From contig JAFFSR010000374.1 in NCBI GenBank assembly GCA_017163975.1, positions 1,722,501-1,786,500 on the forward strand: 64,000 nt of DNA, written 5' to 3'. A program made the position numbers and the translations under genes. The notes beneath the pieces are model-generated. The model was not told the DNA's origin. It ran no database searches and worked only from the letters and a program-made list of their open reading frames with translations. The DNA comes from Anastatus disparis. Its lineage: Eukaryota > Arthropoda > Insecta > Hymenoptera > Eupelmidae. Of this stretch, positions 22,439 through 38,665 are shown in pieces (the stretch's first letter is position 1; each line of letters opens with the position of its first letter).

Positions 22439-23287
22439 TTAAATTATAATATCATTTTGGCAGTGCACCGGATCCAACGCACAATCCGGGCAAAGCCACA
22501 ACCCGCACGAATCACACCTTTGCCACAGACGGACACTCTGTCTATAAAAGGGCTTCGCACAGCCCCAGCACACGTCATGACCTCTACGTGGGCGTTCTAA
22601 TGTGGGATCCGCGCGACGATGAGGTCGAGGTATTATCCTCTCCAATTCTTGTCGTTGCTCTCTTACTCTCCTTAAATCCCGTTGTAGACGTCGTAAACTA
22701 CGCTTTCTCTCTAAACGTAATTTTGCAATACGTGCACGCCAATAGAGGCGTACTACACCAAGCACATTGTGTTGACGAGCCTCATCTGCTCGACACCTAT
22801 GGTAGCGTTGTACCAGTTCGGCCTCATCTACTTCTTCATCCTCCTCATCTTCTTCATCCTCCTCATCTTCTTCTTCTACCTCCATCGCCTGTGGAGCATA
22901 ATCAGGATCAACTTCATCTTCATTGGACTCGTATCCTGAGTCGCTGTTGTCTTCTTCTTCTAGATTATTATTTTCCATTTCTTCTCTGCCTTCTTCAATT
23001 TCATTTTGCAGCATCACTTCTCTGGCTTCTTCTACCTCATTTTGCTGCATCACTGCTCCACCTTCTTCTACCTCATTTTGCACCATCACATCGTTCACCA
23101 CTTCGTTCACTGGGTTGTCCAATATCACCCAGTAATTGGGCACAAAAACATTAGCTACACCGTAATTAATGAAATTTACGAGTGGTGCTATATTCACCGA
23201 GTTCTCAAGTACCTGGACATCGTCGTCCAGTACTTGAACTTCGTCGTCGTCGTCGATGACGATCGGTGATGGTGGTTGATTGAACAT
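22439..23287 (-). CDS. Acidic protein with SIM-like motifs and C-terminal zinc finger (accessory, unknown)
   Basis: 282 residues, open from ATG at 23287. Residues 8-28 hold three hydrophobic-acidic motifs (IVIDDDD, VQVLDDD, VQVLE) of the SUMO-interaction type. Residues ~66-111 are four ~14-residue repeats (VMxQNEVEEG-like). 111-157 is almost all Glu/Asp and contains DSGYES (116-121), a fit to the DSGxxS beta-TrCP phosphodegron. 161-237 is Arg-rich and probably helical. The end has C240/C243, C258/C261, C266/C269 and C276 around W255 and W264, resembling a PHD- or RING-like finger though without a clear ligand histidine. SIMs plus a C-terminal finger recall SUMO-targeted ubiquitin ligases; that is inference. 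It is the leftmost gene, opposite in strand to the core genes, and unbroken. Confidence 0.72.
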   Translation of the reverse strand: MFNQPPSPIVIDDDDEVQVLDDDVQVLENSVNIAPLVNFINYGVANVFVPNYWVILDNPVNEVVNDVMVQNEVEEGGAVMQQNEVEEAREVMLQNEIEEGREEMENNNLEEEDNSDSGYESNEDEVDPDYAPQAMEVEEEDEEDEEDEEDEEVDEAELVQRYHRCRADEARQHNVLGVVRLYWRARIAKLRLERKRSLRRLQRDLRRVREQRQELERIIPRPHRRADPTLERPRRGHDVCWGCAKPFYRQSVRLWQRCDSCGLWLCPDCALDPVHCQNDIII

Positions 23288-26789: not shown

Positions 26790-29700
26790 TTGGTATATCA
26801 TATTGAAGACAAATATCTTCAACAGGGAGATGGTACTACTACTCAGAACCACATTACGATTCATGAAGAATCATCGCGATATTACCGACAATTTAAGTTA
26901 CAAGGTAGACAATTAAGAGTGTCAATATTGCCCCCACCACCTAATGCGAATGTGTATACGTGGTTTGAGGCAGAAAAAAATGATTTATATCGTCATGTGT
27001 GTGAAAATGCGCGACCTTCAGATTATATCGGTATAACTATAAACTCTGACCGATTTGTTCACGGTTCTTTATGGATCTCTTTTAGATTGGTTCGTGATTT
27101 TTCACCGACAGATCTACTCGAGTTATTAGCTTCTGTAGCACAGAGTAATGACAATTTTGAAATCGATGATGTTTTAAACGTGAAAGTCAGCATTGTTTCT
27201 AAACCAAAGGGACGCGGTCGGGTATCACTCACTAGCGAATCAGTTTTCAAGAAATCCATTCTAAATATTCAAAATACCGACAATCTTTGCCTTCCACGCT
27301 CGCTAGTCGCTGCTCATGTATATGCTATACGTGGTCAGATGCGCAGTGGTATTCACCATGACAGGTGGAATAGAATAAGACACCACACAGCACAATATCA
27401 GAAAGTGCAAGCGTTGAAACTTGTCAAAGCTGCGAGAGTTACGATACCCGAAACAGGTTGTGGTATCGAAGAAATAAAATTATTTCAAGAATATTATGCG
27501 CTTTTCGGCGTTGCGATAGTTGTTTATTCTTTTCAAAACTTTGCTCGAGGCTATAAACCACTTTACGATGGTGCACGTTTTGTACACGATGTTGGTAATG
27601 TAGTTAGACATACCTTAAATATAATGTATTACGAAAATTCTAATCATTACCAGCCAATTTTAAATTTACTCGCAGCAGCTGGCAGCTGTGGCTACTGCAT
27701 ACCTTGTAATAAAAAGTTTAGTCATCAAAAAAATCATAAATGTCCACAAAAATGCTGTAAATGTTTTCAGAGTGCCCCTTGCGATATAAATCAGGAAAAA
27801 ATAAAATGTATTCAATGCACTAGAGATTTTTACGGTAATGTTTATCTGGAAAATCATAAAATCTCAAAATTTTTTGATAGTTTTCGGTCGGTATGCGAGA
27901 GCATAAAAATTTGTCGTTTGTGCAGTAAAACAGTTCGAATGTGCGATAAAGATCCACATAATTGTAATACGATATTTTGCAAAATATGTAATCGTAAAAT
28001 ACCGATAGAACACCTTTGTTACATGCAACCCTTTATCAGCAAAAAAGGATTTGCAACCAATAAAAAGAATATACTTTATTTATTTTATGATTTTGAGACT
28101 CAACAATCGGAAATTATCTCGGGTGCTGATGGTGAAAAAATAAGTTTGCATGTACCAAACTTGTGTGTTGTACAACAAGTATGTAATTATTGTTTGGATG
28201 ATGAAAATATAACAAATTCTTGCGAAATATGTGGTATACGCGAATACGTGTTTGAAATCGGCCCTGTAAAACAGCTAGTTGATTTGGCCTTAGCAACAAG
28301 AAAAAGTTTTAAGCAAATTATTTGTATAGCCCACAATGCACAGGGTTTTGATGCGCAATTTATTCTCAAGCATTTGACAGAACGTACAGATATTAGAGAT
28401 AAGCCAGATGTAATTTTAAACGGGTCAAAAATAATCATAATGGAAATTTCAACCGTTAAATTCATAGACAGCTTAAATTACTTACACATGAGTTTAGCTG
28501 CACTACCAAAAGCTTACGGTCTTGCTAATATCGAGAAAGGTACGTTTCCTCATTTGTTTAACACACCAGAGAATTAAAATTACGTTGGAGAAATGCCACC
28601 TGTGTGGTCTTTTTCACCAGATTCGATGAAGGTCGATGAGCGACGAGAATTTATACAGTGGTATAATGAAAAAAAAAATGAAAATTATATATTTAATTTT
28701 AAAAATGAGATTATAAAATACTGTAGACAAGATGTAAAAATTTTACGATTAGCATGTTTGGCCTTTCGCAAAACCTTCATAGAATGTGGTAATACAGATC
28801 CATTCGCAGAGTGCGCCACCATCGTATCATCTTGTATGCGTGTATATAGAAAAAATTTTTTACAAAAAGACACTATAGGAATCATACCTCAGGGTGGTTA
28901 TAGACAAGCAAACAAGCAGTCTATAAAGGCGATGCGGTGGCTGTGTTGGATGGAAAATGTGCTGAATCATCAAATTCGGTATACTGTCCGAGCTCGAGAA
29001 AAGAGACTTCCCGAGGGCCCTCTAGTGGATGGATACTGCGAACTTGAAAACGGTACGAAAATTGTTTTACAATTCCACGGGTGTTATTGGCATGGCTGTG
29101 TATGGTGTTATACAGTGAACCGTGACTCACGCCTCGTAAACGGTGAAAATATGGACAAACGTTTCGAGAGAACCACGCGAATATCCGAAAAGATAAGAAG
29201 CCACGGCTATCAACTAATAGAAAAGTGGGAATGTGATTTTGATCATGAGTACTCACAGAACGAAAGTATGAAGACGTATATCGATAATAAAACACGAAAT
29301 TGGCATGAACCGTTAAATCCTCGAGAAGCATTTTTCGGTGGTCATACGGGTAATACAGTCAAAATTTACGATGCAAAAGAGGGTGAGAAAATAAAATACG
29401 TAGACGTGTTCATTATATCCATATATCTGTAAATACGGTCGATATCCCGTTGGTCATCCTACTCTTTACGTGGGTGAAGATGAGTGTCGCTCTCTGGTGG
29501 GTCAAACAAATAATATAAGTCACGTTGAAGGTCTTATTAAATGCGAAGTATTGCCGCCGTGAAATATATATCATGCTGTACTACCCGTTAAAATGCATAA
29601 TAAGCTTTTGTTTCCGCTGTGTCGAACGTGTGCCGAATCAATGTATACAGCAGATTGTGACCATTAAATCCTGATGATCGAGTTTTTATCGGCACGTGGG

Positions 29701-30716
29701 TTGCTGACGAGTTGAAAAAAGCTGTTCAGATGGGTTATATCATCAGAAAAATATTTGAAATATGGTCTTATAAAATTACTCAGTACAACAAAGCCACGGG
29801 TCAGGGTGGTCTATTTCCAACTTATATCGATAAATTTTTCGCTGAGAAAACTTACGCGTCGGGTTACCCTTCGGAATGTGCTAACGGTGATGAAAACGCG
29901 ATTGCTGGATATATTGAGGTATTTGTGCAACAAGAGGGCATTAAATTAGACAAAACTCGAATAAAATATAACGCTGGTCTGAGATCTGTAGCAAAACTCT
30001 GTTTAAATTCATTGTGGGGTAAATTTGGTCAACGAGAGAATATGCCAAAGACTGAAGTGATAGATGATTCACAGAGATTTTTTGAATTACTCTGCAGTGT
30101 CGAGACCGAGGTCGACTCAATTTTACCGATCAATGAGACGACAATTTATGTAAGTTGGCACAACAAAGAATCGGCTGTTGAGCCATCAACATTGTGTAAC
30201 GTTGTCGTAGCCGCTTATACCACAGCCTTGGCACGTTTTAAACTCTACGAAGAATTGCAACCGCTGGGTGAACGTGTATTGTATTACGATACAGACTCTA
30301 TTGTGTATGTAAGTCGCGTGGGTGAGTACGATGCGAAAAGAGGGCCGTTCTTGGGTGACTTGACCGACGAATTGGCCTGTTATGGTCTTGGCACAAGCAT
30401 CACATCATTCGTCTCTGGAGGACCCAAATTTTACGGATATAAATATTTGACACCAGATGGCGTTGAAGGATGTGTTTGCAAAATCAAGGGTATAAGACTT
30501 AATTCGTCGGTGAGTCAGAAAATAAACTTTGATTCTATACGAGATTTTATTACTGGTAAAATACCGCCACTTTTTGCAAACTATGACGCTATTAGACGCA
30601 CACGATTTCACGATGTTATAACACGGCCCGAATGTAAAATATGCAAGCCTGTGTACTCAAAGAGACGATTTGTGAATAACGAGATTAGCTATCCATACGG
30701 TTATAAGTCTAATTAA
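26790..30716 (+). pseudogene. polB: Protein-primed family B DNA polymerase with OTU-like N-terminal domain (broken)
   Basis: Replicates the element's linear genome. The N-terminal part has an OTU-protease-like pair, D164-N-L-C167 and H286-Y. Residues 300-410 are Cys/His-rich. Exonuclease motifs: YDFE (434), HNxxxxFD (515-521) and YxxxD at ~28724. Polymerase motif A (SLYP) is at ~29410, motif B (KLCLNSLWGKFG) at ~29994, motif C (YYDTDS) at ~30283 and GPKFYGYK at ~30421. Four lesions: in-frame TAA at 28575-28577, frameshift at ~29409 inside motif A, TGA at 29560-29562, frameshift at ~29664-29667. There is no ATG near the N terminus; the acceptor-like CTTCAACAG|GG near 26823 suggests an upstream exon. 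All catalytic motifs remain readable, so decay is recent. Confidence 0.92.
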
Positions 30717-30846
30717 TAATAAATTATTGTAAATATATTATCACTAAAGCGAATATATGATACAGGATAAAGAGAGAGAATTAAAACACAAACTATTTTG
30801 AAATAAATTTTTATATTTTATAAAAATGTAAAACGGAAAAATAAAT

Positions 30847-31062
30847 TTATTTTCTATTAATTGAGTGGTCATCAATTTTTTTCAAAAGCACAGGTTCCAG
30901 AATAATCCGCATCCTTTCCACCCTCATTCTGAATCTTTCTTTATCACGAGCCGCTTGCTCCCACTCTCCACGTCGCGCTGTACGACTCGCATAGTCCCAC
31001 ACGCGTATCACATGAATTTCCGGCTTACCCTCTTTGAAATGCACTTGTTTTGTTTGATTCAT
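30847..31062 (-). CDS. PPP1R15/GADD34-like PP1-recruiting protein (putative)
   Basis: 71 residues, ATG at 31062. It has a PP1-docking RVxF-type motif (K5-Q-V-H-F9), then W22 and ARRGEWEQAARD (29-40) with RF at 43-44. This is the order and spacing of the conserved C-terminal core of PPP1R15 proteins (RVxF, W...A..ARxGxWExxARDRxRF), which bind PP1 and present phosphorylated eIF2-alpha for dephosphorylation. Some large DNA viruses carry similar short proteins that undo stress-induced translation arrest. The protein is almost nothing but that core. It lies between polB and the ATPase, on the opposite strand to both, has a TATA/initiator pair (31213-31245), and is unbroken although its neighbours are not. 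Family call is from motif pattern only; function in the insect cell is inferred. Confidence 0.75.
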   Translation of the reverse strand: MNQTKQVHFKEGKPEIHVIRVWDYASRTARRGEWEQAARDKERFRMRVERMRIILEPVLLKKIDDHSINRK

Positions 31063-31212
31063 CGTTCACTGTACTTTTTGTAGACTCTCTTTTCTATAAA
31101 ATTGTTGAGAATCAAAAATTTAAATCTGATAAATTCTTTGATACAAATTTATTACCTTTTTCAATTTCTTGGTTATTGCTCACGATAGCAGCACTTTTTC
31201 AAGACTAACCAG

Positions 31213-31245
31213 CACTGACCGTTTACCAACGCTTTTAATTTTATA
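31213..31245 (-). promoter_or_regulatory. Arthropod core promoter for the PPP1R15-like gene
   Basis: On the minus strand TATAAAAT (31245-31238) is followed 27 bases later by TCAGTG (31218-31213), matching the arthropod initiator at the canonical spacing. Transcription would start near 31216 and give a ~155-base leader. Confidence 0.65.
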
Positions 31246-31253
31246 CTATAAAT

Positions 31254-31285
31254 GGTGGTGGTGGTGGTGGTGGTGGGGTGGGGGT
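31254..31285 (+). repeat. GGT microsatellite
   Basis: (GGT)n grading into GGGGTGGGGG, in the divergent region between the PPP1R15-like gene and the ATPase. The rest of 31286-31536 is non-coding and includes a GC-rich CGCGCGCCGCCGCC stretch near 31427. Confidence 0.7.
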
Positions 31286-31536
31286 ATCAATTATAAGTAG
31301 GTGATTAATACTTATTTGGCTCTTTCAGCCATATAGCTAAAGAGCGGAATAATGCTGGCGTCAGACAGCTATATGGCTAATCAGCTAAACGATCGGCTAG
31401 CGCCAGCACGATAATGCTCGCACACGCGCGCGCCGCCGCCGCCCCCACTCTTGCTCATCACTCTTAATGATCGTATATGTAGAATGGTTCGAGGATTTGA
31501 TGAGGTTAGTAATAGAAGTTTAGCAGCAGCGGTAAC

Positions 31537-32214
31537 ATGGATGTTTGCAGGTGGGTGCATCCGTGGACTTTGATGATTTGTGGACCCAGCTCGTGTGGTA
31601 AAACAGTATTCGTGAAGAATTTTTTGCATCACATTGATCGCATGAGTGATACAAAATTCGAGCGTATACTCTTGTACTATACCGAGTGGCAGCCAATTTA
31701 CAAGGAGTTGGCCGAGGGTATCGAATTTCACGAGGGTTAACCAAAGAGCGAAGACTATGCCAATGATCCACGAGCAAAACTCTTGATTCTCGACGATCTG
31801 ATGAGAGAATCGTCCAACAGATCTGTAGTAAATCTCTTTACCAAAGGCAGTCATAACAATAACTTGAGCGTCATCTTTATCTCGCAAAATCTCTTTCATC
31901 AAGGTCAGCGAGAAATTTCTTTAAACTCTAATTACATCGTGGTATTTAAAAATCCACGCGATCGAGCGCAAATAAATCATCTGGCGCGCCAAGTCTGCCC
32001 CGAGGAGCCTCGTTTTTTGCAAGAGGCATATCTCGATGCCACAGCACAACCACACGGCTATTTGTTCATAGATCTGAAACAGGGTACGCCTGAAAATGTG
32101 AGATTTCGTACTTGTATATTTCCGTTTGACAAACATCAGTACGTTTATGTGCCTCGTTGCAAACCCATAAAAGCTGGTGCTCGCTCGAATAATGTACCAG
32201 TTGTACGATTGTAA
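31537..32214 (+). pseudogene. Genome packaging ATPase, FtsK/HerA (A32-like) type, one in-frame stop
   Basis: Pumps the genome into the capsid in polinto-like viruses. Walker A GPSSCGKT at ~31582-31605 and Walker B LLILDDLM at ~31771-31788; the downstream QNLFHQGQR segment and the Gln/Asn-rich sensor region are typical of the family. A single TAA at 31738-31740 splits a 225-codon frame; frame is kept on both sides. The stop codon of the gene overlaps the ATG of the next by ATG-context TAATGG (32212-32216). Confidence 0.9.
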
Positions 32215-32564
32215 TGGAGCCGGTAAGACATAGTCGTAGCAGCAGCAGACCAATTCCAGAAAAGTACTGGACTCAGCTACATGTTTTGTGTAAAATCGAA
32301 CTTTCTCAACTCAAGGCCATATTACGCGAAGCAAATTCCAAACTTATAACGTTCATTTGCGAGTGTGCTTTGAACATTTTACGTGGAAATATTCCATTCA
32401 GCAAATATCATAAGAAACAATTGCGAAAAGTCGCACCACTGTTGCGAAAACTCGCTAAACCGGGTATTTTGGAGGTAAAAAGGAAATCGGTGGTAAAATC
32501 AGCATATTTACTACGGCTAATTGTGAAACCTGTTTTATCGGCATGGAGTACGCAAGAAAAATGA
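32214..32564 (+). CDS. Small conserved Polinton protein
   Basis: 116 residues, basic. The core KLITFICECALNILRGNIPF followed by a Lys/Arg-rich helix is of a kind repeatedly found next to the ATPase in animal Polintons; its role is not established (a minor virion or core protein is possible). It overlaps the preceding stop and the following start (32543). The C terminus may be altered, since it lacks the usual Gly-rich hydrophobic tail. Unbroken. Confidence 0.65.
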   Translation: MEPVRHSRSSSRPIPEKYWTQLHVLCKIELSQLKAILREANSKLITFICECALNILRGNIPFSKYHKKQLRKVAPLLRKLAKPGILEVKRKSVVKSAYLLRLIVKPVLSAWSTQEK

Positions 32565-33391
32565 TTTTAGTACCGCAAGAGTGCTTGGAGCAACAGCGGC
32601 TGCCGCAGCAGCACAACGTACCAACTACCAATCATACAACACCACCATCCAGTGTCCAGACACCTGGTACAGCCACGACACGACTTGACGAAGAAATGAG
32701 TAAAATTTTACATTCTACGGGTGATAAGCGTCAAAAATCTCTATAATATCAACAAATCTTGCAGCGTTACTTGCATCTAAGAGGGGAGGAGAAGGATGAA
32801 AATAGGAGTATAATACGTCCAAACGAGACAACATTATTAGAAACGGAAACGACGATGGGTACAGACAATAATGACGAAATCGACGACGAACAGCTTGTCC
32901 AGTCGGTACCGCAGAAATTTCAAAGTAATGCTAGGCATCTCATAAGATATTTGCGGCAAGCTGGTAATATTGAATGGGATAGTCGTGGTATGATCAAGCT
33001 AGATGGCACTGTTGTCGAGGGTGCTAATATTGTCGATTTAATGAACGAAGCTATGAGAAGTAGAAAAAGGCCGCCACCGCGCGGATACAAACAGTTTGCA
33101 CGCGTCTTGCGACAAGTTAGCATACCTCGAGAATTCATTGGTAACGATCAACTGTGGCGTACGATTGCATCACATAGCCCTGATTCACCGCTGTCATCGT
33201 CGTCAGAAAACGAAGGTTATTATTCTTCAACAGCTACTGGTCTAACGAGCGTAAAGGAGAAAGAAGTCGAAAGTGCGAAAAAGCGTAAAAAAGTTGGTAG
33301 CAAGTTGGCGGCTATGCCATCAACCTCTGTAAAAAAGAGTCGTCTCAAACAGCTAAAATGGGTCCGTATGTGGAAGCATGGAAGGAAGTGA
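32543..33391 (+). pseudogene. Conserved Polinton protein of unknown function, one in-frame stop
   Basis: Begins MEYARKMILVP. The first part has a Pro/Thr/Gln linker and a helical LDEEMSKIL segment. TAA at 32744-32746 interrupts it, and the same frame continues with YQQILQRYL. A second conserved domain around 32945-33140 contains WDSRGMIKLDG and IVDLMNEAMRSRK. The tail is Ser- and Lys-rich. The two-part layout recurs in animal Polintons but the function is unknown. It overlaps the PLA2-like gene by 34 bases in another frame. Confidence 0.75.
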
Positions 33392-33747
33392 TGGAGGGGG
33401 AGGAGGAGGAGATGGGGGAGAAAACTGGTACTTTTATAGACCGATTAATTTCGGTTGTACCCTTTGAAATGCATCTACCAGGCTACCAGTTTCTCGGCCC
33501 TGGCACGCATCTCGAAGAGCGTCTCAGACGTGGTCAGAGAGGAAAAAATCCTCTTGACAATGCCTGTCTAGAGCACGATATTTCATATTCAAATAAAAAA
33601 ATAACGAATCATATAAAAGCCGACAGACTGCTGGCTGAACGAGCATTTTCACGCATGCTCTCGGAGACTGCAGATGTTAATGAAAAGACTGCAGCTGGTA
33701 TTACTGTTTTGTGCATGGTCAGTAAAATTGCGTTTGATAAATTTTAG
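33358..33747 (+). CDS. Phospholipase A2-like protein
   Basis: 129 residues. A calcium-loop-like YQFLGPGT (43-50) and the catalytic C70-LEHD-ISY segment with H73-D74 match the PLA2-like domain best known from the unique part of parvovirus VP1, where it breaches the endosomal membrane. In Polintons a similar membrane-penetration role during entry is inferred. The N terminus is acidic (EGEEEEMGE). Open frame, no lesions. Located between the conserved 32543 gene and the integrase, so likely within the late/virion cluster. Confidence 0.82.
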   Translation: MGPYVEAWKEVMEGEEEEMGEKTGTFIDRLISVVPFEMHLPGYQFLGPGTHLEERLRRGQRGKNPLDNACLEHDISYSNKKITNHIKADRLLAERAFSRMLSETADVNEKTAAGITVLCMVSKIAFDKF

Positions 33748-33823
33748 AAACACATTAAAAATACATTTAAAAGACAGCAAAAGAGAGAGAAAAAGCTAGT
33801 TTGTAAGAGGAGGAGGAGGAGCA

Positions 33824-34945
33824 ATGAAAAAGAAGGAGAAAAAGAAGAAGGAGGCGAAAAAGCCGGACGATCTTGAGCATTATTACTATAATCTTTCTGC
33901 ACCATCAGCGTACGCTGGTGCTCATCTACTGAAACACGCGAAACCCAAAAAATTTGATAACAATACCATTGCCAAATGGTTGGAGAGTCAGGATGCACAT
34001 ACCTTACACAAACTCGTGCGACATCGTTTTCCTTGTCGACATTACAACGTTTTTAGCCCCTTTGAAGTGTGGGAAGCTGACTTGGCAGATTTTAGATCAC
34101 TTAAAACCTACAATGATGGGTACAGCTATATTCTCATTGTCATTGATGCACTTTCAAAGTTTGCCTGGGCAGAGCCTCTTCTCGACAAAACCAGTCGAAG
34201 CGTCGCTGTAGCATTAGACAAAATTTTATCACGATGTAATGATAGACATCCTATTTATCTACAGACTGATAAAGGTAAAGAGTTTATCGGTCGAGAGGTG
34301 CAAGAGATGCTAAAAAAGAAACATATTACCTATCGAGTCGTCAGAGACCCTGATATAAAGGTAGCCATTGCCGAACGCTTTATTCAAACTCTCAAAGGTC
34401 GTATCTGGCGATACTTTACTCACTCGCGCACAAGACGTTATATAGATGTTTTGCAAAAAATTGTGACGTGTTACAACGAGTCGTGGCACAGTGCCATAAA
34501 AATTCCCCCTTCCAAGGTCAACTTATATAATGCTCACGTGGTACGTCAAAATTTGACGTTGCGTTACAGCGGAAAACAGCCGTTTCGAGTAGCTAAATAC
34601 AGCGTTGGCGATCTGGTTCGTGTCAGTCGTGCCAAGACAGCTTTCAGGAAACCATACGAGGGTGGCTGGACTCTGGAGCTGTTTAAAATTATAAGAGTCG
34701 ACACAAGACAACAACCACCCGTCTATATTTTGACAGATCTTGATGGAGAAAAAATTGACGGATATTTTTACGAAGAACAGTTGAGCAGAGTGCGCAAAGA
34801 TTTAGATAGCGAAGCGTTTGAGGTTGATGAGGTTTTGAAGAGCAAAGGTAGGGGGTCGAAAAAACAATATTTGGTCAGTTGGAGGGGGTACCGAGAAGAA
34901 TTCAATTCTTGGATAGAAGCTAAAGATTTAAAAAATTTACAATGA
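33824..34945 (+). CDS. int: Retroviral-type integrase with C-terminal chromodomain
   Basis: 373 residues, intact. Lys-rich start, rve core with D86 (WEADLADF), D149 (QTDKGKEF) and E184 (AERFIQTLKGR), then an SH3-like stretch near 250-325 and a chromodomain at 331-371 (FEVDEVL...YLVSWRGY...NSWIEA). It cuts and joins the element ends into target DNA, giving the 6-bp duplication seen here; the chromodomain could steer insertion to marked chromatin such as this satellite, which is inference. Its TGA overlaps the next ATG (ATGA at 34942-34945), a compact viral arrangement. Confidence 0.95.
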   Translation: MKKKEKKKKEAKKPDDLEHYYYNLSAPSAYAGAHLLKHAKPKKFDNNTIAKWLESQDAHTLHKLVRHRFPCRHYNVFSPFEVWEADLADFRSLKTYNDGYSYILIVIDALSKFAWAEPLLDKTSRSVAVALDKILSRCNDRHPIYLQTDKGKEFIGREVQEMLKKKHITYRVVRDPDIKVAIAERFIQTLKGRIWRYFTHSRTRRYIDVLQKIVTCYNESWHSAIKIPPSKVNLYNAHVVRQNLTLRYSGKQPFRVAKYSVGDLVRVSRAKTAFRKPYEGGWTLELFKIIRVDTRQQPPVYILTDLDGEKIDGYFYEEQLSRVRKDLDSEAFEVDEVLKSKGRGSKKQYLVSWRGYREEFNSWIEAKDLKNLQ

Positions 34946-36301: not shown

Positions 36302-37600
36302 ATGGCGCTGTTGCATACAGAATCTTGTCAGTCGATCAAGTCGGAATTATCACTTTTTGAATTACCTTCGACACAGACTGCAATTGAAGGCTCTTACTGG
36401 GTTCAGTACAAACCGATATCTTCACTTAACGACCAATTACCAATTGAATTTACCATCCCTGGCAACACAGTATCTAGACTTGGCTCACATAATGTTAAGT
36501 GTGAGTGTCAGTGTAACATGAACTAGTTCTGAACCACCTAAAGATCCGAAAGTTGGACCAATAAATAATCTTTTGCATTCGTTGTTCAATTAAGTCGACG
36601 TGCTATTCAATCAGAAGCCTGTTTCACCACCAAACAATGCTTATGCATGCAGAGCTTACATTGAAACATTACTAAATTATGGCCCAACAGCTAAAAAGTC
36701 TCATTTAACGAGTTGATTGTGGTACGATGATACAGCAGGAAAAATGGACGATACCACAGGTGGTAATACAGGTCTCAGCCAGCGTAAAGCGCTTATGGTT
36801 AACAGAAAGATTGATTTACTCGGCCATTTACATTGTGATGTTTTTAATCAAGACAAATTATTACTGGGTGGTGTTGAAGTTAGAGTAAGGCTCGTGCGTT
36901 TTCGTGATGGTTTCTGTCTCATGGATCCCGCTGGTGCTTTCAGAGTAAATATTACAGAGGCTACGCTTTTTGTGCGTCGAGTAAGATTAAATCCTTCACT
37001 CGTGCTAGCACACGAAAAACTATTGTCGCAGACTACTGCAAAATACCCACTGACACGTGTAGAAGTTAAGGCTGTTACGTTACATAATGGTGTGCATGGG
37101 GAAACAATCGACAATGTCTTATTAGGTCAACTACCAAAAAGAATTATACTCGGTTTTGTTGAGAATAAAGCTTACAACGGAGATAAAAGTCTTAACCCGT
37201 TTAATTTAAGAATTTTAATATAAATTTTTAATGTCTGTACGTTGATGAAATGCAAGTGCCATCGAAACCCTTACAGCCAGATTTCAAAAAAAGCAAAATG
37301 TACGTTGATGCTTATCATACACTTTTTTCCGGCACTGGTATTCACTTTATGAATTCAGGCAACTCGATTACACCTAAAGACTATCCAAACGGTTACTGCC
37401 TATTCGCTTTTGATTTGACACCTGATTTATCGGCGAGTGATGGTAGTCATTGGAATTTGATAAAAAATGGTAATGTACGAATTGATGTTAGATTCGACGA
37501 CCCGCTAGAGGGCGCTATAAATTGTATAATTTATACTGAATACGACAATTTGCTCGAAATTGACTCGTCGAGACAGGTTGTCGTGGATTATAGCGGTTAA
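36302..37600 (+). pseudogene. Major capsid (hexon-like, double jelly-roll) protein, heavily broken
   Basis: Fragments are collinear with the Polinton major capsid protein (F54H12.2-like family). 36302-36470: start MALLHTESCQSIKSEL, WVQYKPIS. After a frameshift near 36470, the next frame carries DPKVGPINNLLHSLFN and NNAYACRAYIETLLNYGP, broken by TGA at 36519-36521, TAA at ~36588-36590 and TGA at 36714-36716. 36717-37223 is open (WYDDTAGKMDD...). Another shift and stop at ~37215-37230 precede the last open part 37250-37600 ending LLEIDSSRQVVVDYSG. At least five lesions make this the most damaged gene in the element. Confidence 0.88.
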
Positions 37601-37692: not shown

Positions 37693-38157
37693 ATGGACGT
37701 GGTGATTGACGTGCAGTTTTTAAAGGACAACAAAAACCGTTTGATTCCAAAGGAGGTGGCTGTACTTGCTATTCATAAAAACTTCATCGCTCATTGGATT
37801 GTGGCGCCTCCTTGTAATTTAAGACGCTTACCTAAAAATGCTTTGAGACAGAACAATTGGGTGACACTGAATCATCATGGTCTGGAGTGGTACGAAGGTG
37901 ATATATCGATAAAAAGATTAGACAAAAATTTGGAAGATGTTTGCAAGCATTGTCGTGTAATTTTCGTGCGAGGTCAAGAAAAGCTTGAACTACTTTCCAA
38001 GCTCACCACCTGTAAGATTGAAAATTTAGAAAAACAAGATTGTCCAGCTCTTAGAAATTTGAATTTCAGCAGTGTACAGTGTATGCATCATTACATAAAA
38101 TCATCGTATTCAAATTACGTGTGTGCTCTAAATAACGCTGCTAATCTGAAACAGTGA
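37693..38157 (+). CDS. Conserved Polinton protein, unknown function
   Basis: 154 residues beginning MDVVIDVQFLKDNKNRLIPK, with HWIVAPPCNLRRLP (about 34-47), a HHGLEWYEGD block and a Cys/His-rich C terminus (CPALR...CMHHYIKSSYSNYVCALNN). The N-terminal DVQ motif and the overall pattern recall an RNase H-like fold, but I cannot confirm catalytic residues. Related proteins sit beside the protease in animal Polintons. Open, with its own promoter-like element upstream. Confidence 0.6.
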   Translation: MDVVIDVQFLKDNKNRLIPKEVAVLAIHKNFIAHWIVAPPCNLRRLPKNALRQNNWVTLNHHGLEWYEGDISIKRLDKNLEDVCKHCRVIFVRGQEKLELLSKLTTCKIENLEKQDCPALRNLNFSSVQCMHHYIKSSYSNYVCALNNAANLKQ

Positions 38158-38221: not shown

Positions 38222-38665
38222 ATGAATTCAAAAGAGATTGTTCGATATCTGATGAGGATCAAGTTTCACGCAGTAGGCGTTTATCCAGCGGATCGAATTC
38301 CTCTGATGTGGGTGAAACCTTGTGCGCTTGTGCTTAATACGCAAAATTATAACCAGCGTGGTGCGCACTGGGTTGCCATATACGTTGATAAGTATGGCAC
38401 AGGTGTGTACTTTGATAGTCTTGGTAAGCCGCCACAAATTCAACAACATTTACGACGTATTCAGCAAAATTGTTAAAAATTTAGATGGAATAATAAACGC
38501 TTACAAAGCGAATATTCCAATGTTTGTGGTCATTATTGTATCATGTTTCTGTATTATATGTCTACCGGATTGGGTTTCAAGAAATTCTTGGAAAATTTCT
38601 CGCAGAATTTGCAAAAAAATGATGCTATAGTCAAGAATTTTATAGAAAAAACTTGCTATGCGTAA
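38222..38665 (+). pseudogene. Adenain-like cysteine protease, one in-frame stop
   Basis: Processes virion proteins in adenovirus and polinto-like viruses. YPADRIP start region, then H49 (GAHWVAIYVD), D65 (VYFDSLG) and C102 (CGHYC, TGT at 38525-38527), in the H-D/E-C order of the C5 peptidase family. A single TAA at 38474-38476 lies between the acidic residue and the cysteine; the frame is otherwise continuous to TAA at 38663-38665. The ATG at 38222 fits the family start better than the earlier TTG at 38192. Confidence 0.88.

What the first reader, a model, noticed from the sequence alone, without database searches (positions are those of the whole stretch)
30847..31062. A PPP1R15/GADD34-like PP1 recruiter encoded by a Polinton
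The 71-residue minus-strand ORF combines a KxVxF PP1-docking motif with the W...ARRGEWEQAARD...RF core of PPP1R15 proteins and almost nothing else. Known DNA viruses of animals use comparable short proteins to dephosphorylate eIF2-alpha and keep translation running. I do not know of a described polinton/adintovirus example. It is intact in an element where most core genes are broken, and has its own TATA/initiator pair. If real, it points to a virus-like life phase facing the host integrated stress response.
Basis: partly seen in the sequence, partly recalled or inferred. Interest (0 to 1): 0.9.

Follow-up and report, generated by a model that had tools for sequence, protein, structure and literature searches.

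The report
Polinton-encoded mini PPP1R15 (GADD34-like) protein
A virus-like mobile element in a probably hymenopteran insect genome carries a short, selectively maintained protein that looks like the core of the cell's own switch for restarting protein synthesis after stress, which suggests that such elements still face, and counter, the host's stress defence.

Summary
Window 30847-31062(-) is a 71-residue ORF homologous to the PPP1R15 (GADD34/CReP) core: E 1.4e-6 to PPP1R15A and 6.1e-5 to DP71L for the ORF alone, 1.8e-15 for a profile of its relatives. The PP1-docking V/F, the Arg-site R, the invariant W and the G-actin contacts F and R are present. It lies in a decayed Polinton but is not unique to it. 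The same genome holds hundreds of copies in six divergent families, at different gene positions. Between families A and A2 it is under purifying selection as strong as polB (omega 0.11 against 0.10-0.16). The host's own PPP1R15 exon, found on another contig, falls in another clade than all families but C, so this is not a recent copy of it. A named adintovirus has an unannotated homologue. Best reading: a viral-type mini-PPP1R15 that recruits PP1 and G-actin to dephosphorylate eIF2-alpha. Binding and activity are inferred, and the distal actin segment of cellular PPP1R15 is missing. Viral PPP1R15 mimics are known. I found no Polinton carrier in print in my searches.

The parts
30847..31062 (-). 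PPP1R15-like mini protein, 71 aa (V7/F9 docking pair, R30 Arg-site, W34, F44, R47, V48)
31214..31245 (-). TATAAAA (31245-31239) and arthropod-type initiator TCAGT (31218-31214, A at 31216), spacing 29
   Evidence: read; kept in 7 of 9 family-A loci with 420 nt upstream, not found in A2, E and C
27339..28577 (+). polB, first frame piece (DNA_pol_B_2)
   Evidence: E 2.8e-9
28593..29432 (+). polB, middle frame piece
   Evidence: collinear in L029-L033; no Pfam scan of this piece
29730..30716 (+). polB, last frame piece; its 3' end faces the mini-PPP1R15 gene
   Evidence: E 3.8e-7
31537..31740 (+). packaging-ATPase-like piece 1
   Evidence: tblastn (36.5%, E 2.3e-6) to the frame L036:20-757(-), which matches Pox_A32
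31801..32214 (+). packaging-ATPase-like piece 2
   Evidence: collinear with piece 1 in L029-L033; no Pfam match of its own
33358..33747 (+). phospholipase A2-like domain protein
   Evidence: PF08398 E 1.9e-9
33824..34945 (+). integrase (rve) with C-terminal chromodomain
   Evidence: PF00665 E 1.1e-11, PF00385 E 5.3e-8
36744..37600 (+). capsid-like protein in two pieces (36744-37223, 37250-37600)
   Evidence: 57-59% identical to the L046 frame, whose named relatives are mostly F54H12.2-like proteins; the first piece has no Pfam match; that F54H12.2-like proteins are Polinton capsid proteins is recalled
38222..38476 (+). piece like the adenain-type protease frame of L046:2495-3031
   Evidence: likeness seen by eye; the L046 frame is Peptidase_C5 E 1.1e-5, the window piece has no Pfam match

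Best explanation
The ORF is a viral-type mini-PPP1R15: the minimal core of a PP1 regulatory subunit, carried by Polinton/adintovirus-like elements. Its KxVxF motif docks on PP1 and R30 enters the PP1 Arg pocket. W34, F44 and R47 then bring G-actin onto the complex, so that PP1 removes the phosphate from serine 51 of eIF2-alpha and protein synthesis goes on while the element replicates. Shown here: homology, retention of the key residues, presence in several Polinton families, purifying selection, and separation of families A, A2, A3, B, E, F and G from the host gene. Inferred: PP1 and actin binding, eIF2-alpha as the substrate, expression, and a productive virus-like phase.
For: Homology to PPP1R15A and DP71L. 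Residues whose mutation cripples PPP1R15 are kept in 52 element copies: R30 51/52, F44 52/52, R47 51/52, I or V at 48 52/52; V7, F9, W34 and D40 were partly fixed by the motif used to cut the cores, so their counts are biased. The functional roles come from PMC4394352 (passages and the first part of section 9) and PMC8500838 (section 6, the first part of section 7 and passages). Isolated C-terminal cores suffice to attenuate the stress response (PMC4394352 passage). Purifying selection: A vs A2 omega 0.145 on 40 pairs and 0.111 in the control set of three A and three A2 copies, against polB 0.103-0.164 and integrase 0.121. Simple neutral simulations: 0 of 5000 reached the observed conservation in 7 of 8 pairs, 36 of 5000 in the eighth. 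Carriage by Polintons: gene context; 22 of 73 listed polB loci have a copy downstream on the same strand within 15 kb. A protein of a named adintovirus is homologous (P0006).
Against: The window ORF is below the Pfam cut-off (14.6 against 26.1 bits). It ends 37 residues after W34 and lacks the HRxxIWxERF-type end of the host gene. That region of cellular PPP1R15 includes a segment whose deletion abolished actin stimulation in vitro (PMC4394352); [quoted passage not shown] No expression, binding or activity data exist. The element in the window is itself decayed. In the tree neither the element copies nor the tail-bearing rows form a single group: each label needs 4 changes, 2 of them forced by well-supported branches.
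Confidence: 0.75

Rival explanations
1. It recruits PP1 but to another substrate (a viral or host protein), not eIF2-alpha; the missing distal actin segment reflects a changed specificity.
For: The host-type distal end is absent from the 10 element representatives and present in the host exon; the PP1-docking half is kept.
Against: F44 and R47, counterparts of the two actin contacts with the strongest mutant effect in PMC8500838, are kept in 52 of 52 and 51 of 52 copies. They would have little reason to stay if actin-dependent eIF2-alpha targeting were lost.
Confidence: 0.15
2. It is a dominant-negative or sponge that titrates PP1 or G-actin and so keeps eIF2-alpha phosphorylated or remodels actin.
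For: The core is short and lacks the long frame that precedes the core exon in the host gene.
Against: Isolated C-terminal cores of mammalian PPP1R15 are active, not inhibitory (PMC4394352 passage).
Confidence: 0.06
3. A captured host exon without function, carried along by amplification of the element.
For: The host core exon starts exactly at the docking motif, behind a TTTTCAG acceptor, so one exon would give the whole ORF; within-family omega is 0.38-0.88 in A, A2, B, F, C and G, as expected of decaying copies; family C does not group with the other element families, so a second capture is possible.
Against: Between-family omega 0.11-0.16 for A, A2 and A3, equal to polB; 0 of 5000 simulations in 7 of 8 pairs; host exon in another clade than A, A2, A3, B, E, F and G.
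Confidence: 0.02
4. Chance resemblance or a NIPSNAP-like fragment.
For: Weak Pfam NIPSNAP match of the ORF, E 0.061; 7 of 11 members match NIPSNAP weakly, best E 0.0026.
Against: Profile against PDB E 1.8e-15 to PPP1R15A, and no NIPSNAP chain among the 8 matches at E<=1; 11 of 11 members match PF10488, best E 8.8e-6.
Confidence: 0.01

Closest known systems
Cellular PPP1R15 (GADD34, CReP; insect PPP1R15), conserved C-terminal core
   Same: RVxF motif, Arg-site R, invariant W, actin-contact F and R; near-collinear with PPP1R15A
   Different: No N-terminal region, no HRxxIWxERF-type end as in the host gene; one short ORF in a mobile element; families A, A2, A3, B, E, F and G in another clade than the host exon
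African swine fever virus DP71L
   Same: Stand-alone protein (71 residues in the PDB chain), profile match E 4.3e-9
   Different: Carried by a large animal virus; its docking region is outside the aligned part (profile positions 16-59)
Herpes simplex virus PPP1R15 and the insect-virus PPP1R15 coGV-gp036, both named in the PMC4394352 Figure 1 legend; that coGV is a granulovirus is recalled
   Same: Viral co-option of the same 70-residue core; one case is already an insect virus
   Different: Not compared here by sequence; not Polintons
P0006, hypothetical protein of Megastigmus wasp adintovirus, and P0029, Nasonia 'protein phosphatase 1 regulatory subunit 15A-like'
   Same: Short PPP1R15-like proteins, 57% and 51% identical to the window ORF over 86% of it; same broad clade
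   Different: P0006 is annotated as hypothetical; the genome context of both was not seen. My paper searches found no text tying either to Polinton function

Membership tests
PPP1R15 core (as shared by cellular and viral forms) | Significant sequence homology to PPP1R15 proteins | tested here: met
   ORF alone E 1.4e-6, profile E 1.8e-15; below the Pfam gathering score on its own, 14.6 of 26.1 bits
PPP1R15 core (as shared by cellular and viral forms) | RVxF-type PP1-docking motif | tested here: met
   K5-Q-V7-H-F9; V 51/52 and F 52/52 in element copies (counts biased by the motif used)
PPP1R15 core (as shared by cellular and viral forms) | Arg-site arginine four residues before the invariant Trp | tested here: met
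   R30; 51/52 element copies, 82/82 database relatives
PPP1R15 core (as shared by cellular and viral forms) | Invariant Trp and G-actin contacts Phe (W+10) and Arg (W+13) | tested here: met
   W34, F44 (52/52), R47 (51/52) (W count biased by the motif); roles from PMC8500838
Cellular PPP1R15 | Distal amphipathic actin-binding segment (mouse A W609-R613, human B F696-Q700) | tested here: not met
   Window ORF ends at W+37 with I68 at W+34; the host exon has W there (counted; segment from PMC4394352). So it is not filed as a cellular-type PPP1R15
Cellular PPP1R15 | Long N-terminal region and a core in its own exon | tested here: not met
   71-aa single ORF; the host locus does show a core exon behind a 342-residue frame
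Viral mini-PPP1R15 | Stand-alone core encoded by a virus or virus-like element | tested here: met
   Embedded among polB, ATPase-like and integrase genes
Viral mini-PPP1R15 | PP1 binding and eIF2-alpha dephosphorylation | not testable with these tools
   no wet experiment; structure prediction switched off
Polinton / adintovirus | Family B polymerase (DNA_pol_B_2) and rve integrase | tested here: met
   PF03175 and PF00665 in the window
Polinton / adintovirus | A32-type ATPase, double-jelly-roll capsid, adenain-type protease | tested here: met
   In carrier families: Pox_A32 E 1.4e-10 and DJR-like E 7.4e-116 (L036), Peptidase_C5 E 1.1e-5 (L046); in the window only by likeness to frames of these loci
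Polinton / adintovirus | Long terminal inverted repeats with target duplication | tested here: inconclusive
   No terminal inverted repeat found around the window element (one search listed the 25 longest of 31 pairs); ends unresolved

The most novel reading that the evidence does not exclude
Polintons of Hymenoptera own an ancient clade of mini-PPP1R15 genes that is separate from the genes of their hosts. It is moved as a cassette between elements and placed at different points of the genome map, and kept by selection because these elements still pass through an infectious phase in which the host stress response (PERK/GCN2 to eIF2-alpha) acts as an antiviral barrier.
Probability: 0.5. Interest if true: 0.88.

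Novelty: new variant of a known kind. Interest (0 to 1): 0.77.

Why it matters
Whether animal Polintons are only transposons or also viruses is a long-standing question (recalled). A host-stress antagonist is of use mainly to an element that must make much protein in a cell that resists it. Finding one under polB-level selection, in several families, turns that question into a direct test: express the protein and measure phospho-eIF2-alpha. Insects lack PKR (recalled), so the case would also point to GCN2 or PERK as antiviral kinases in insects. Hundreds of copies in the same genome as the host's own gene give a natural laboratory for host-virus mimicry.

Tried and rejected
Rejected: a NIPSNAP reading (weak); recent capture of the window's gene from this host; the promoter pair as general support; intactness of the single ORF as evidence (short ORF, 123 of 150 scored matches have no inner stop by my count of the listing, but those 150 are the best-scoring of 1145 candidates).

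Led nowhere: single-sequence protein search found nothing; viral contigs gave no relative of the ORF, of its alignment, of two capsid-type proteins or of a polB piece; PHROGs gave nothing for four proteins; terminal repeats not found. My script label 'PRO' for window 37693-38157 was wrong: that frame is a conserved ORF of unknown role, and the protease-like frame is 38222-38476.

Limits: genome match lists are capped at 150 scored places, so copy numbers are lower bounds. The database search admits only proteins of 0.55 to 1.75 times the query length and scored only the 7986 candidates sharing most words, so that its 82 hits are all short follows partly from the method. L045 and L019 gave no core by the motif used and L059 was left out for a length difference, so all three are missing from the selection counts. 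Pairs are not independent. Other genes of the control set range from omega 0.14 to 0.63. The simulation is simple: random single changes, transition weight 2, from one sequence. The tree used 82 rows, leaving out 12 of the 82 database proteins (P0071-P0082); it rests on 73 columns, its bootstrap had not settled, and its root is arbitrary. The tail pattern used there is loose: 4 of 23 tail-labelled rows (P0032, P0034, P0036, P0049) fall on the element side, and both family-C rows fall on the host side. The co-location count was made from typed coordinates: the 73 polB loci that I took from a printed list which was itself cut, and listed copies on some of the same contigs, not all copies; two placeholder entries in that script matched nothing. 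The named-relative count is of the best 120 listed of 2088 hits.

Full report
What is there. Window 30847-31062 on the minus strand is an ATG-started ORF of 71 residues. Searched alone against the chains of solved structures it finds PPP1R15A (7nzm_C E 1.4e-6; 4xpn_B 2.9e-5) and African swine fever virus DP71L (9nb9_B 6.1e-5), with PPP1R15B at 0.062. On Pfam PF10488 it scores 14.6 bits, below the curated 26.1. An 11-row profile (10 element copies plus the host exon) raises the matches to E 1.8e-15, 4.3e-9 and 4.4e-7 (PPP1R15A, DP71L, PPP1R15B), and all 11 rows match PF10488 at E<=1, best 8.8e-6.

Key residues. PMC4394352 (passages and the first part of section 9 read) and PMC8500838 (section 6, the first part of section 7 and passages read) name the residues that matter: V and F of RVxF, the Arg-site R (R658 of PPP1R15B), the invariant W (W582/W662), and the actin contacts F592 and R595. 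By alignment they correspond to V7, F9, R30, W34, F44 and R47 of the window ORF. In 52 element copies R30 is kept in 51, F44 in 52 and R47 in 51; in 82 database relatives R30 is kept in 82, F44 in 82 and R47 in 74, with K in 7 more. V7, F9, W34 and D40 were partly fixed by the motif with which cores were cut.

Where it lies. In the window the gene stands tail to tail with a polB broken into three frames and head to head with an ATPase-like gene. Integrase with chromodomain, a phospholipase A2-like gene and capsid-like pieces are further to the right. The element is a decayed Polinton. Its ends and terminal repeats were not found.

Not unique. In the 939-Mb genome the ORF has 150 scored matches of 1145 candidates, all at 85% identity or more over at least 67 of 71 residues. 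A PF10488 search of the genome gave 75 matches at E<=10, two over the cut-off. Six element families were told apart by sequence: A (with A2 and A3), B, C, E, F and G, besides the host exon. Gene contexts differ. A and A2 carry it antisense between polB and ATPase (five loci and the window). B carries it just behind a conserved ORF of unknown role, in an element with a Pox_A32-type ATPase and a double-jelly-roll capsid gene. C lies beside a relative of the same conserved ORF in L040, L041 and L043. In L046, family E lies beyond capsid-like and protease-type genes. One G copy lies downstream of a polB piece (PF03175 E 4.5e-6, just over the cut-off). One F copy lies 1.2 kb from a polB match on the same strand. 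L045, a broken copy, showed no other Polinton gene. Of 73 polB loci taken from the printed list, 22 have a copy within 15 kb downstream on the same strand (from part of the listed copies). Further searches list 19 G-like and 9 C copies, and by my reading of the lists well over 100 each of E and F. Eight E copies are identical in protein to the query, the query's own locus included, and nine listed polB loci have open frames over 1400 residues without stops in the matched stretches (my count), so activity was recent.

Host gene. C254 holds one exon, VRFDLTPTIHPMIQWNYAYRAARRGPWEEMARDRERF...IWHERFED, directly behind a TTTTCAG acceptor. It follows a 342-residue acidic frame; the donor site was not determined. 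A core in its own exon is what PMC4394352 describes for PPP1R15. None of the 17 other window frames searched matched its 10 kb. In the tree the host exon groups with database rows most of which bear the same tail (99/80 with P0044; 96/92 for a clade of 15 rows, 13 of them tail-labelled). Families A, A2, A3, B, E, F and G fall in another clade (95/87, 54 rows) with the adintovirus protein P0006. Both C rows fall elsewhere, on the host side, on a long branch. Over the whole tree each label needs 4 changes, 2 forced by well-supported branches. The tree rests on 73 columns, so only the host/element split is used here, and for C a separate origin is open.

Selection. Between A and A2 dS is 0.58 and dN 0.085 (omega 0.145, 40 pairs); A-A3 0.133 (20 pairs) and A2-A3 0.157 (8 pairs). 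Most other between-family comparisons are saturated at synonymous sites. In a matched control on three A and three A2 copies the gene has omega 0.111, polB 0.103-0.164, integrase 0.121 and ATPase piece two 0.153; the other genes range from 0.14 to 0.63. Within families omega is 0.38-0.88 in A, A2, B, F, C and G, 0.24 in E and 0.18 on the single A3 pair, as expected of copies decaying after insertion. In simple neutral simulations 0 of 5000 reached the observed conservation for 7 of 8 pairs, and 36 of 5000 for the E pair.

Mosaic. dS between A and A2 is 0.60 in this gene but 0.13-0.19 in its neighbours (last polB piece, both ATPase pieces, integrase), while the first two polB pieces show 0.69-0.73. 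Identity is 0.68-0.86 over 30750-31350 between flanks mostly at 0.90-0.99. Exchange of the gene as a cassette would explain this; a local rate difference is not excluded.

Wider spread. The profile found 82 proteins at E<=0.01 in the protein database; they are short partly because the search admits only lengths near the query's. One is a hypothetical protein of Megastigmus wasp adintovirus; one is a Nasonia protein named PPP1R15A-like. Among the 120 listed relatives of a family-E capsid-like protein, 16 rows name an organism, and by my knowledge of the names all 16 are Hymenoptera. The window's host is therefore probably hymenopteran. This is inference.

How it works. Best reading: a minimal PPP1R15 core that joins PP1 and G-actin to dephosphorylate eIF2-alpha. 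PMC4394352 reports that isolated mammalian cores suffice to damp the stress response. One feature speaks against full equivalence: the host-type distal end is absent from the 10 element representatives, and deletion of the corresponding segment of mammalian cores abolished actin stimulation in vitro. PMC8500838 found the contact there less important than F592 and R595, and both of those are kept. Family C has aromatic residues of its own near that end. Binding, substrate and expression are not shown.

What is known. Viral PPP1R15 mimics are known, including one of an insect virus (PMC4394352 figure legend). For Polintons or adintoviruses I found none in print: 0 papers for polinton with PPP1R15, with GADD34 or with integrated stress response, and 0 for adintovirus with eIF2; broader listings showed none by title or the start of the abstract. 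Of 29 papers holding 'adintovirus' I searched two by term and saw no GADD34 or phosphatase passage; the one paper holding both Megastigmus and adintovirus I did not open. The library lacks most subscription papers, so this is not proof of absence.

Noticed in passing
window 27339-33750 against L031: Families A and A2 are mosaics: first polB pieces and the mini-PPP1R15 gene are far apart (dS 0.6-0.7) while the last polB piece, ATPase pieces and integrase are close (dS 0.13-0.19), as after recombination between elements.
   Followed up: partly
window 33358-33747 and L036:799-2004: Phospholipase A2-like domain (PF08398) in Polintons of two different families.
   Followed up: no
L049, L050, L060: Family G frames show no ATG before the docking motif back to the preceding stop; the protein may be spliced from an upstream exon.
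   Followed up: no
window 22439-23287 (-): Acidic 282-residue ORF with a cysteine-rich C-terminus (RING-like by eye) left of the element; only weak Pfam matches below their cut-offs.
   Followed up: no
P0029 (Nasonia) and L053, L059, L066: The Nasonia protein and family-A3 frames share a run of asparagines shortly before the core, a hint that the Nasonia protein also lies in a Polinton.
   Followed up: no
G000, polB matches: For 51 of 73 polB loci I found no mini-PPP1R15 copy within 15 kb among the copies typed in, so some Polinton families may lack the gene; lists are capped and the typed set is partial.
   Followed up: partly
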